From contig JAMLGI010000001.1 in assembly GCA_023958085.1 (NCBI GenBank), positions 1 to 64,000 on the forward strand: 64,000 bases of DNA, read 5' to 3'. The notes below the pieces were generated by a model. It was not told the origin of the DNA and did no database searches. It saw only the letters and a list, made by a program, of their open reading frames with translations. Position numbers and translations under genes: made by a program. This DNA is from Solirubrobacterales bacterium (GTDB lineage: Bacteria; Actinomycetota; Thermoleophilia; Solirubrobacterales; 70-9). This document shows, piece after piece, positions 2,073-53,169 of the stretch. The stretch's first letter is position 1. The number at the start of each line of letters is the position of its first letter.

Positions 2073-2561
2073 CTACGAATCCTTGAGGAAGTCGTCCGGT
2101 GAGACGTCGTCGAGGAAGTCCTTGAATCGCTCGACCACCTGATCGTTGTCCTCAACCGCCTGATCGAACTCGATCGAGGACTCCTCGATCACGTCCTCGG
2201 AGACAAAGATCGGTGCTTCGACCCGGACGGCCAGCGCCAACGCATCCGAGGGCCGGGAGTCCAGTTCAATCTCGCTTCCGGAAACCGAAAGCGTGATCGA
2301 CGCGTAGAACGTGTTGTCGCGAAGTTCGTTGATCGAGATCCGCTCACAACTGGTGCCGACCTGGTCGAGCAGTTCGACCATCAGATCGTGGGTCATCGGC
2401 CGAGGTGTCTCGGCGCCCTGGAGCTTCATCAGGATCGCCGCAGCCTCCGGATGTCCGATCCAGATCGGCAGGAACCGGTTGTCGTCGATCGTCTTCAGCA
2501 ACACGATCGGCTGTTTGCCGACCATGTCGAAACTGACCCCGTAGATCTGAACCTCACGCAT
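2073..2561 (-). CDS. Bifunctional nuclease (BFN/DUF151) family protein
   Basis: A 162-aa protein starting MREVQIYGVSFDMV. It belongs to the DUF151/BFN family, members of which have reported RNase and DNase activity; in other bacteria the function is poorly defined. Recognisable parts are PIVLLKTIDDNRFLPIWIG at the N-terminus, the EAAAILMKLQG helix and the SRPSDALALAVR motif typical of the family. The tail is acidic. A longer start at 2633 is possible in frame, but the ATG at 2561 fits the family start and sits 9 nt after a perfect TATAAT box. The gene converges with parB. Confidence 0.85.
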   Translation of the reverse strand: MREVQIYGVSFDMVGKQPIVLLKTIDDNRFLPIWIGHPEAAAILMKLQGAETPRPMTHDLMVELLDQVGTSCERISINELRDNTFYASITLSVSGSEIELDSRPSDALALAVRVEAPIFVSEDVIEESSIEFDQAVEDNDQVVERFKDFLDDVSPDDFLKDS

Positions 2562-2570
2562 CGCCGACCG

Positions 2571-2576
2571 ATTATA
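2571..2576 (-). promoter_or_regulatory. -10 box TATAAT of the BFN gene, near-leaderless
   Basis: On the minus strand a perfect TATAAT lies 9 nt before the ATG at 2561. A transcript starting 6-8 nt after the box would begin at or just before the start codon. No Shine-Dalgarno sequence fits between them. Confidence 0.55.
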
Positions 2577-2671
2577 AATCGCGGGCCGTCCGATCCCCGG
2601 CCGACCACACCTCTTCGCTCCGCGGAAAGGCATCGACAGAGCTCCGGCAGTACAATCCCGCTTCCTCGCGA

Positions 2672-2745
2672 GGGCGATTAGCTCAGTCGGTTAGAGCGCA
2701 TCTCTGATAAGGATGAGGCCCCTGGTTCGAATCCAGGATCGCCCA
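2672..2745 (+). tRNA. tRNA-Ile (anticodon GAT)
   Basis: A 74-nt cloverleaf. The acceptor stem GGGCGAT pairs with ATCGCCC, with discriminator A. The D arm is GCTCAGTCGGTTAGAGC. The anticodon stem CATCT/GGATG encloses loop CTGATAA with anticodon GAT. The T arm has GGTTCGAATCC. CCA is not encoded. A TACAAT box at 2651-2656, 15 nt upstream, is a plausible -10. A structured repeat begins 3 nt after the 3' end. Confidence 0.97.
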
Positions 2746-2748
2746 CTC

Positions 2749-2870
2749 GGAACCACCAGAACGACGCCTGCCGCGTCACCACGGTCGGGATGACCGACTC
2801 GTGTACGTGGGTACTGTCGCCGGCCATCCCAACCGGGCTTCTTGCATCCGTCGCCCTGGAGGTCCCGAGT
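2749..2870 (-). repeat. Structured intergenic repeat family 2, copy A1
   Basis: A degenerate copy of the family described at 2881-3020. Outer arms are 2756-2766 and 2849-2859 (CCAGAACGACG with CGTCGCCCTGG). Inner arms are 2782-2792 and 2825-2835 (CGGTCGGGATG with CATCCCAACCG). Both stems differ in sequence from copy A2 but largely keep pairing. The copy starts directly after tRNA-Ile. Strand is given relative to the conserved module in copies B and C. Confidence 0.75.
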
Positions 2871-2880
2871 GTTGGCGGGC

Positions 2881-3020
2881 ACCGCCCCGGAACCACCAGA
2901 GCGGCGTCTGCGGCGTCACCCCGGACGGGACGAACAGCTCATGTACCCACGTACTATCGCGGCCCGTCCCGTCCGGGTTCCTTGTATCCATCCGCTCTGG
3001 CGATCCCGGTGCAGCACCCG
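2881..3020 (-). repeat. Structured intergenic repeat family 2, copy A2
   Basis: Positions 2881-2920 are the reverse complement of a 40-nt module also found at 10740-10779 and 53130-53169, with one mismatch. Nested inverted repeats follow. The outer arms are 2896-2904 (CCAGAGCGG) with 2992-3000. The inner 12-bp perfect arms are 2920-2931 (CCCGGACGGGAC) with 2966-2977. A small palindrome GGTGCAGCACC lies at 3008-3018. A further partial copy continues at about 3030-3070. No coding sequence is credible here. The gap 2746-3260 therefore holds repeats only. Confidence 0.85.
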
Positions 3021-3075
3021 GGGTTTGTCGTCGGCCATCCCGACCGGGCTTCCGGCATCCACCCGCCACAAACCA

Positions 3076-3193
3076 TTCTGGAGCCGATTTAGGCTGTATA
3101 GCCGCCACAATCGGCTCCAGAACGGGAGCGGGTACGCGATTTTCGGTTCTGGAGCCGATTTAGGCGAAATGGCCGCCACTATCGGCTCCAGAA
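3076..3193 (-). repeat. Paired 47-nt hairpin repeat (family 1), locus 1
   Basis: Two 47-nt hairpins at 3076-3122 and 3147-3193 with identical arms TTCTGGAGCCGAT and ATCGGCTCCAGAA, each enclosing 21 nt. The spacer between them is 24 nt. The same doublet, in the opposite orientation, occurs at 21669-21786 and 34523-34640 with identical dimensions. It lies between tRNA-Ile and the 3' end of ddl. Strand is relative to the other two loci. Confidence 0.95.
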
Positions 3194-3260
3194 TGGTTGG
3201 AGGGGGGCCGGTTGAGGGCGCGCTCGTTCGAGCCGGGGGTCCTCCGGGTCCTCCGGAGTC

Positions 3261-10543: not shown

Positions 10544-10576
10544 ACCAGACCCGGCTTCACCGATGAGATGTTTGTC

Positions 10577-10779
10577 CCGTCCGGGTGACGCCGCAGACGC
10601 CGCTCCTTTGATGGTTTTCCGAGCGGACGGTCCAATACGCGGGTGCTGCACCGGGACCGTCCAGAGCGGATGGATGCAAGGAACCGGGAGGAAACGGCCC
10701 GCGATCGTACCCACGTACCTGAGCTGGTCGTTTCCTTCCGGTGACGCCGCAGACGCCGCTCTGGTGGTTCCGGGGCAGT
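10577..10779 (+). repeat. Structured intergenic repeat family 2, copies B1 and B2
   Basis: Copy B2 spans 10661-10779. Its outer arms are 10661-10669 (CCAGAGCGG) with 10756-10764, and its inner 13-bp arms are 10684-10696 with 10729-10741. The inner arm sequence differs from copy A2 but still pairs, with one G-T wobble. The conserved 40-nt module is 10740-10779. Copy B1 (10577-10662) is partial: it has the module start, then arms GGACGGTCC at 10625-10633 with 10654-10662 around a GGTGC-T-GCACC palindrome. The 257-bp gap holds only this repeat and the promoter of the next gene. Confidence 0.85.
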
Positions 10780-10788
10780 GCCCGCCTC

Positions 10789-10800: not shown

Positions 10801-11364
10801 ATGGCACTCCGACGTAACGCTCCCGACAAAGTGAAACTGAAGCTGCGGGGCGACGGTGCCCCGCTCGGTGACCTCGGCAACGACCTGCTGCCGAAAGGGG
10901 AGCTGGACGGTCCGGCCTCCGCCTCCCTGATCCGGGACGCCGACGGACACTCCTTTCTCGACTGGTCCGGTGGCGACGGCACCGCCATGCTCGGGCATCC
11001 CGATCCGAAGGTGACCGAGGCAATGGTTGCGGCTGCGGTCGGGCGGCTGGGTGAACTCGACCGGGACAGTCATTCGCGGCTGGTCACGCTCACCGAGCGC
11101 CTGGCGAACGGGCTGGGTGACCTGGCCAACGATGCCCCCGGCGGCCTCGGCCTCGAGGTCCGGTCCTCACCCGGGCTGGTGTTCGTCAGCCTCAACTCCG
11201 GCTTCCCGGGTGCCTACGAATCCTTTCGCGGGGCCATGCTCAAGCGCGACATCTGGCTGCCTCTCACCCCGGAGGCCCCCTGGCTGATGACGCTCGACCA
11301 CGATTCCGCCGCGATCGACCGGACCGTGCTCGCCGCCGGTGACGCACTTGGAGAACTCGGTTGA
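10801..11364 (+). CDS. Glutamate-1-semialdehyde aminotransferase-like small domain without the PLP domain
   Basis: A 187-aa protein. Residues about 15-75 resemble the N-terminal small-domain segment of HemL/class III aminotransferases (DADGHSFLDWSGGDGTAMLGH, then PDPKVTEAM). Residues about 90-187 resemble the C-terminal segment (TLTERLANGLGDLA, FRGAMLKRDIWLPLTPEAP, HDSAAIDRTVLAAGDALGEL). The roughly 260-residue central domain with the PLP lysine is absent, yet the join is in frame and the ORF is clean. Both segments belong to the same small domain in the fold, so this may be a stable non-catalytic protein. It overlaps the next gene by 4 bp. Function unknown. Confidence 0.7.
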   Translation: MALRRNAPDKVKLKLRGDGAPLGDLGNDLLPKGELDGPASASLIRDADGHSFLDWSGGDGTAMLGHPDPKVTEAMVAAAVGRLGELDRDSHSRLVTLTERLANGLGDLANDAPGGLGLEVRSSPGLVFVSLNSGFPGAYESFRGAMLKRDIWLPLTPEAPWLMTLDHDSAAIDRTVLAAGDALGELG

Positions 11365-21617: not shown

Positions 21618-21668
21618 CCCCAACCAGCCCAAACCCCCAACCGTTCAACCAACCCAAGTCCCCGACTG

Positions 21669-21786
21669 TTCTGGAGCCGATAGTGGCGGCAATGTCGCCC
21701 AAACCGGCTCCAGAACGGGGAGGGCGAGGTCACCTTCGGTTCTGGAGCCGATAGTGGCGGCTATTTGGCCACAACCGGCTCCAGAA
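21669..21786 (+). repeat. Paired 47-nt hairpin repeat (family 1), locus 2
   Basis: Hairpins at 21669-21715 and 21740-21786 with a 24-nt spacer and 71-bp period. Arms are TTCTGGAGCCGAT and ACCGGCTCCAGAA. Loop cores carry small inner stems (GGCG/CGCC in the first, TGGC/GCCA in the second). It sits after a terminator and 70 bp before tRNA-Phe. Confidence 0.95.
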
Positions 21787-21856
21787 CGGTGGGGGCGGGC
21801 GGGGGTCGTGGCCGTGGCGGCTCCGGGGGCATCCCGGTAGGCTTCACCCCTCGCAG

Positions 21857-34493: not shown

Positions 34494-34522
34494 AGTCGGC
34501 AAACCGGCAAGGCCACCACCCC

Positions 34523-34640
34523 TTCTGGAGCCGATTGTGGAGCCTATGTGGCCAAAACCGGCTCCAGAACGGTTGTGACTTCATCCCCCTGCCTTCTGGA
34601 GCCGATTGTGGAGCCCATGTGGCCTTTATCGGCTCCAGAA
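34523..34640 (+). repeat. Paired 47-nt hairpin repeat (family 1), locus 3
   Basis: Hairpins at 34523-34569 and 34594-34640 with a 24-nt spacer and 71-bp period, as at the other two loci. Cores read TGTGGAGCC-YATGTGGCC in both copies, so these two are closer to each other than to copies elsewhere. It lies between the methyltransferase pseudogene and the 3' end of sucD. Confidence 0.95.
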
Positions 34641-34681
34641 TGGGAGCGGGTGGTTGGTTCAGGGCCTATCGAGACAGGCCC

Positions 34682-53063: not shown

Positions 53064-53169
53064 GCTTCGAGGGGAGACCTGTCAGTCGCATGGAGCGACA
53101 AAGCTCCCCTCGATGGCCGGGCGGCCTTCGGTGACGCCGCAGACGCCGCTCTGGTGGTTCCGGGGCAGT
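53064..53169 (+). repeat. Structured intergenic repeat family 2, copy C (hybrid)
   Basis: The 40-nt module at 53130-53169 is identical to that at 10740-10779. Upstream of it, the variable stem is replaced by a new hairpin: TCGAGGGGAG (53067-53076) with CTCCCCTCGA (53104-53113), enclosing a second stem GTCGC-N5-GCGAC at 53084-53098. The distal outer arm CCAGAGCGG is missing in this copy. Confidence 0.8.

What the first reader, a model, noticed from the sequence alone, without database searches (positions are those of the whole stretch)
2749..3020. Second structured repeat whose stems change together between copies
Copies A1 and A2 here and B2 at 10661-10779 share a plan of outer stem, conserved linker and inner stem. 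The inner stem reads GGTCGGGATG/CATCCCAACC in A1, GGACGGGAC/GTCCCGTCC in A2 and GGAGGAAACG/CGTTTCCTTCC in B2. The outer stem changes from CCAGAGCGG/CCGCTCTGG to CCAGAACGACG/CGTCGCCCTGG. Both strands changing in step is the mark of a conserved secondary structure. The central GTAC-N4-GTAC core appears in both orientations (GTACCCACGTAC and GTACGTGGGTAC).
Basis: seen in the sequence. Interest (0 to 1): 0.78.

Follow-up and report, generated by a model that had tools for sequence, protein, structure and literature searches.

The report
Hairpin repeats behind Solirubrobacterales stop codons
A group of little-known soil and wastewater bacteria carries dozens of related long hairpins directly behind the ends of housekeeping and tRNA genes, and the hairpin shape has been kept by matched changes on the strand opposite to the gene, so it is a genuine, so far unnamed structured repeat family whose job is not yet known.

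Summary
A1, A2 and B2 belong to a ~141-nt structured repeat: 55 places in the window's 2.44-Mb genome and many more in genus mates. On 45 aligned copies, 33 of 44 pairs have changes on both sides, 217 cells against 72.7 expected by shuffling; a tree-aware null leaves 8 of 54 structure pairs and no other pair significant.

New here: (1) copies start mostly 1-8 nt behind a stop codon or tRNA end, in one orientation; TAG is over-represented (45 of 62 against 64 of 252). (2) The strand that folds best is the one opposite to that gene: 134 of 135 copies, controls unbiased. (3) Seventeen loci carry a copy in two or more species. (4) Exact core matches lie only in Solirubrobacterales; weaker relatives occur in a sister genus.

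Closest known kind: GTAG-tagged REP palindromes; differences are size, conserved internal loops, strand bias, no Y1 transposase. Best mechanism (about 0.35): a 3'-boundary hairpin that meets polymerases or transcripts running into the gene from outside. RNA versus single-stranded DNA is unresolved; no transcript data.

The parts
2739..2879 (-). copy A1 (better-folding strand given; adjacent gene tRNA-Ile is on +)
   Evidence: R2 83.6 bits, R3 79.4 bits; -97.0 kcal/mol on -, -69.7 on +
2877..3020 (-). copy A2, tandem to A1
   Evidence: R2 113.7 bits, R3 104 bits; -97.9 on -, -70.5 on +
3026..3060 (+). partial third copy, right arm only
   Evidence: 89% identical to 2815-2849 (family D2)
10640..10783 (+). 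copy B2, inverted relative to A1/A2 (better-folding strand given); 17 nt before the ATG at 10801, not behind a stop codon
   Evidence: R2 122.3 bits on -, R3 106.3 on +; -101.6 on +, -77.8 on -; context
10563..10605 (-). fragment B1: one arm only, 93% identical to A2 positions 12-55
53130..53162 (-). fragment: left arm only, identical to A2 positions 1-33
2672..2745 (+). tRNA-Ile; the A1 hairpin follows its 3' end directly
   Evidence: 15 of 15 genus mates in which this tRNA was found have no copy here

Best explanation
A family of about 141-nt imperfect palindromes, related in habit to REP/BIME repeats, that sits as a boundary element directly behind gene 3' ends. Shown: one long hairpin with two conserved purine-rich internal loops on the better-folding ('R') strand (RAGGA against GACGAAG; GAU against UGA around a 4-bp apical stem), stems that vary in step, fixed orientation to the neighbouring gene, retention at the same genes across species. 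Shown in part: spread and homogenisation inside genomes. Inferred: the R strand is opposite to the neighbouring gene, so it is what a polymerase or transcript running into that gene from its 3' side would carry; I propose that the hairpin stops, marks or destroys such incoming antisense or read-through RNA at the gene boundary. A role as an ordinary sense terminator is less likely because most copies lie within 8 nt of the stop codon, where ribosomes are reported to repress terminators.
For: Covariation. Orientation: upstream gene in the same sense for 75, opposite for 8, none found for 2 of 85 core-type copies; 37, 10 and 3 of the 50 others. Distance mostly 1-8 nt. Strand: R strand more stable in 134 of 135; controls: tRNAs fold better as sense 9 of 9, other gene ends antisense-better 122 of 216, strong ones 27 of 63. 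Arm-to-arm comparison with neutral scoring: on the gene-sense strand A.C 337 against G.U 34 (outer stem) and 64 against 12 (inner stem), 78 copies. Counted as gains on a tree, R-strand G.U 76 against A.C 44, p 0.004; with pairs chosen on the gene-sense fold 60 against 40, p 0.057. Same loop types, strand bias and stop-codon position in sister genus g11. Loci shared between species: 17, including rpoD; the S7 end is shared by G001 and three g11 loci. Terminators several bp behind a gene are almost fully repressed in E. coli (PMC4824070, abstract).
Against: No transcription data. In 53 of the 85 core-type copies the gene on the other side points the same way, so nothing obvious transcribes the R strand there, and no promoter is conserved in the flanks. 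No U-tract follows the R hairpin (4 of 72 have 5 T in 8; control 21 of 336). R is also more stable under DNA parameters (132 of 135), so single-stranded DNA is not excluded. Most of the wobble excess sits in about seven fixed columns. B2 in the window is not behind a stop codon. Nine of 12 copies 26-130 nt behind a gene already follow a classical terminator.
Confidence: 0.35

Rival explanations
1. Mobile repeat recognised as folded single-stranded DNA (REP/IS200-like or attC-like): the R strand is the strand an enzyme binds, and stop-codon placement reflects a TAG-like target.
For: TAG over-represented at the junction, 45 of 62 against 64 of 252; GTAG REPs are reported often to supply the TAG stop of flanking ORFs (PMC3733652 section 15); copy gained at tRNA-Ile in this genome only; near-identical copies at different genes; R also favoured under DNA parameters.
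Against: Y1 transposase domain absent from this genome and from all element-rich mates, 1 of 18 genomes in all and that one element-poor; no integron integrase over cut-off in any of 18; no target duplication seen in the junction listing (by eye); on contig C1, whose start carries rsmG-parA-parB, orientations are 6 and 6, so no tie to replication direction is visible (the origin position is my inference).
Confidence: 0.25
2. Gene-sense 3' hairpin: transcription terminator or exonuclease block that protects the upstream mRNA, like REP in operons.
For: Position and orientation behind genes; sense hairpin still strong, mean -73.6 kcal/mol; conventional terminators are rare downstream of copies, 11 of 82; housekeeping genes.
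Against: Strand bias favours the other strand in 134 of 135; conventional terminators are about as rare behind other gene ends (20 of 234); some copies lie inside apparent operons (mIHF then gmk; PhoU-like then Pit-like; gmk, PhoU and Pit named from sequence by recall); ribosome repression near stop codons (PMC4824070 abstract).
Confidence: 0.2
3. Independent small RNA with stable transcript.
For: Structure and conserved loops.
Against: Copies share the hairpin only; flanks diverge at its base and show no common promoter (by eye); no Rfam match at gathering score in the window besides tRNAs.
Confidence: 0.08
4. No selection: arms kept alike by hairpin-templated repair (quasipalindrome correction) and gene conversion.
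For: Homogenised inner parts with locus-type bases, chimeras L014 and L016, inner types swapped at the same locus (one search lists core and non-core types at one locus).
Against: Unpaired internal loops are the most conserved parts, which such repair would erase; strand-biased wobble; retention at the same genes.
Confidence: 0.07

Closest known systems
GTAG-tagged REP repeats and their dimers (BIME/REPIN), Di Nocera 2013, PMC3733652 (abstract, passages, section 15 read)
   Same: Dispersed intergenic palindromes, mostly close to the 3' end of upstream genes; tag often supplies the TAG stop; many subfamilies, loops and stems vary
   Different: About 141 nt instead of 20-40; conserved internal loops; fixed orientation; better fold on the strand opposite to the gene; no Y1 transposase in element-rich genomes
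CGTC-tagged REP repeats (same paper)
   Same: No dedicated transposase; located behind genes; CGTC occurs in our loop I on the gene-sense strand
   Different: 8-9 bp stems with 4-5 nt loops; the families in that paper come from five phyla without Actinobacteria
ERIC and other long imperfect palindromic repeats (recalled; listed in papers, not read)
   Same: Long palindrome of >100 nt, dispersed, transcribed when inside operons (recalled)
   Different: No sequence relation tested; fixed stop-codon position and strand bias not known to me for ERIC
Integron attC sites (recalled)
   Same: Follow stop codons; bottom strand folds
   Different: No integron integrase, no cassette arrays; housekeeping genes and tRNAs carry the elements

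Membership tests
GTAG REP | unpaired GTAG tag at one end of the palindrome | tested here: not met
   Junctions show NTAG with any N, and TAA or TGA in 17 of 62
GTAG REP | 20-40 bp unit | tested here: not met
   models of 141 positions
GTAG REP | located mainly behind genes, close to the stop | tested here: met
GTAG REP / IS200-IS605 | Y1 (RAYT) transposase in the genome | tested here: not met
   PF01797: 1 of 18 genus genomes, not this one
CGTC REP | 8-9 bp stem, 4-5 nt loop, CCA tail | tested here: not met
   structure; features from PMC3733652
MITE | terminal inverted repeats plus target duplication | tested here: inconclusive
   Base stem acts as inverted repeat; no duplication seen by eye, no empty site compared base by base
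Integron attC | integron integrase in the genome | tested here: not met
   TIGR02249 over cut-off in 0 of 18
Intrinsic terminator | U-tract directly behind the hairpin | tested here: not met
   R side 4 of 72; gene-sense side no T-run in the flanks listed (by eye)
Known Rfam family | score at gathering threshold | tested here: not met
   window: tRNAs only; three relatives' loci: nothing near a gathering score
Structured RNA | transcript of the folding strand | not testable with these tools
   no transcriptome held

The most novel reading that the evidence does not exclude
A lineage-specific class of outward-facing boundary RNAs: a structured element with protein- or RNA-recognised purine loops, placed exactly at gene 3' ends and read on the antisense strand, that guards housekeeping genes against incoming transcription, and that has spread and been exchanged between genes as a module while its position is inherited.
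Probability: 0.2. Interest if true: 0.8.

Novelty: new variant of a known kind. Interest (0 to 1): 0.56.

Why it matters
Intergenic palindromes are usually filed as junk or as transposon debris. Here a dense, natural experiment (dozens of copies per genome in the richest cases, 13 of 18 genus genomes, a sister genus) shows selection on shape, on internal loops and on one strand, tied to gene ends. If the strand bias reflects RNA, it points to a 3'-boundary device that acts against antisense transcription; if single-stranded DNA, to a mobilisation system without a known enzyme. Either can be tested with strand-specific RNA ends or resequencing.

Tried and rejected
Y1/RAYT mobilisation: domain absent where copies abound. 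Integron attC: no integrase over cut-off (weaker hits are the general tyrosine-recombinase signal, also found in all 14 control genomes). Lagging-strand model: 6 and 6 orientations on C1. Intrinsic terminator read on the R strand: no U-tract. Stop codon paired into the base stem as a general rule: only 10 of 84 fully paired, so dropped, although it holds for the rpoD copies of G003, G011 and G013 and by eye for several g11 copies. First model R1 lost the inner stem and was not used further. Exact-core scan of viral contigs: none. Paper searches on Solirubrobacter(ales) with palindromic repeats or structured RNAs, stem-loop intergenic repeats, MITE with stop codon, and actinobacterial terminators found nothing on this family; searches gave related work. 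Open-access library only. Of papers, I read the abstract, passages and section 15 of PMC3733652 and the abstract of PMC4824070; the others I saw in search listings only.

Rows dropped: near-identical copies; A2 was built from 45 of the copies then in hand, leaving out the chimeras L014 and L016, tandem units with another base and copies cut by contig ends; copies scored on both strands were kept once, on the better strand; elements without a readable gene end (103 of 135 kept); two of 80 non-redundant copies without a recognisable loop.

Full report
WHAT IS THERE. The window lies at the start of contig C1 of a 2.44-Mb, 31-contig genome, in a genus whose named members are Solirubrobacterales assemblies. 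A1 follows tRNA-Ile directly, A2 follows A1, B2 lies 7.6 kb away in inverse orientation. A search of the own genome with A2 gave 44 matches at E up to 1, from full copies to one-armed fragments. A covariance model R2 built from 45 full-length copies of several species finds 55 distinct places in this genome when each place is counted once.

THE STRUCTURE. The element is one long hairpin: paired base, outer stem, internal loop I, variable inner stem, internal loop II, 4-bp apical stem with 4-nt loop. On alignment A2 (45 rows) 87.6% of cells pair, 33 of 44 pairs show changes on both sides, 217 such cells against 72.7 with s.d. 7.0 in shuffles and 54-69 with slid partners. On alignment A5, 50 rows read on the other strand, 39 of 53 pairs and 307 cells against 96.6 with s.d. 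10.0. A tree-aware null of my own in the style of R-scape gives 8 of 54 structure pairs at E below 0.05 and no non-structure pair. The conserved letters are in the unpaired loops; on the R strand RAGGA is found in 129 and GACGMHG in 130 of 135 copies with lenient windows; these copies were found by a model that contains the loops, so the counts describe and do not test. Fifty of the 135 lack the first core motif within 5 mismatches; most of these use other inner domains, including apical stems TTGAC/GTCAA and GGAC/GTCC.

WHERE IT SITS. Genes were called with a simple GC3-based script, so contexts are approximate. Of 85 core-type copies 75 have the upstream gene in the same sense, 8 opposite, 2 none; of 50 others 37, 10 and 3. 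Most start 1-8 nt behind the stop codon or close behind a tRNA. Stop codons next to core-type copies: TAG 45, TAA 11, TGA 6; background in the same loci TGA 153, TAG 64, TAA 35 (p 1e-14). Neighbouring genes include RpoD, ribosomal protein S7, actinobacterial IHF, Era, NDK, ketol-acid reductoisomerase, GMP synthase, AdoHcy hydrolase, PPK2 and PriA. Twelve copies lie 26-130 nt behind the gene; in nine of these a classical GC hairpin with T-run lies in between. B2 is an exception: 17 nt before a start codon, though CTAG precedes its base.

THE STRAND. Energies on the two strands differ strongly: R strand better in 85 of 85 core-type and 49 of 50 other copies. Controls: tRNAs better as sense in 9 of 9, other gene ends 122 of 216, gene interiors 106 of 216, strongly folding gene ends 27 of 63. 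The cause is G.U pairs on the R strand where the gene strand has A.C. About seven columns hold most of this; counted as separate gains on a tree, 76 against 44, or 60 against 40 with a pair set biased the other way. Known mutation biases of transcribed or leading strands would, by my reasoning, give the opposite sign. The bias is also seen with DNA energy parameters (132 of 135), so RNA and single-stranded DNA cannot be told apart.

HISTORY. Blast with one copy finds 7 of 61 genomes (own included), all in the genus. R3, the R-strand model, finds 20 of 201 genomes of the order at E up to 1e-6: 13 of the genus, 6 of genus g11, 1 of g12. Nine loci from that search were read (seven in g11, one in g12, one long variant in the own genus); all fold better on the R strand, and most of those in g11 abut a stop codon and keep GA-type loops. 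Five genus members have no match. Seventeen loci carry a copy in two or more species; a few groups may join paralogous acyl-CoA dehydrogenases or thiolases. An orthologous copy is the best match in the other genome in 29 of 120 cases against 10.7 expected, mean identity 71% against 65%, so positions are inherited or re-used while content is partly exchanged. At tRNA-Ile the copies are a gain of this genome: none in the 15 mates where the tRNA was found, where gene order also differs. Copies 96-100% alike over 111 nt lie at different genes with different outermost base stems, which suggests gene conversion of the inner part; this is inference.

READING. The shape, the strand and the gene-end position are shown; function is inferred. 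I favour a boundary hairpin met by transcription coming from outside the gene, at about 0.35, over a DNA-mobilisation element (0.25), a sense 3' hairpin (0.2), a free small RNA (0.08) and no selection (0.07). The closest described kind are GTAG REP repeats, which also sit at gene ends and often supply the TAG stop (PMC3733652, section 15); size, loops, strand bias and missing transposase keep this outside that family.

Noticed in passing
window 3073-3126, 3146-3198, 21668-21790, 34519-34648: A second palindromic repeat, TTCTGGAGCCG..CGGCTCCAGAA, about 47-50 nt, often next to the main element; 30 distinct exact-form copies in the fetched loci, no strand bias (other strand better in 14).
   Followed up: partly
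L203, L205, L262, L216 and others, 150 nt behind the element: Intergenic regions of genus mates hold further long, nearly perfect hairpins of other sequence, in rows behind the element.
   Followed up: no
L014 and L016 (own genome): Chimeric copies whose left arm is of one subtype and right arm of another, joined at the apical core.
   Followed up: partly
L211, L219, L232, L253, L258, L174: Other inner domains inside the same outer stem and loop I, for example GGTTCGGGAACGTACNNNNGTACGCCCCCTTCACC.
   Followed up: partly
L210, L257, L275, L280, L230: The rpoD 3' end carries a copy in five genus members; in three of them the stop codon is fully paired in the hairpin base.
   Followed up: partly
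window 2073-2745: tRNA-Ile and the gene next to it stand in another order and orientation than in most genus mates.
   Followed up: no
G000 contigs C9, C12, C17, C23; several G011 and G015 contigs: Assembly contigs start or end at copies of the element.
   Followed up: no
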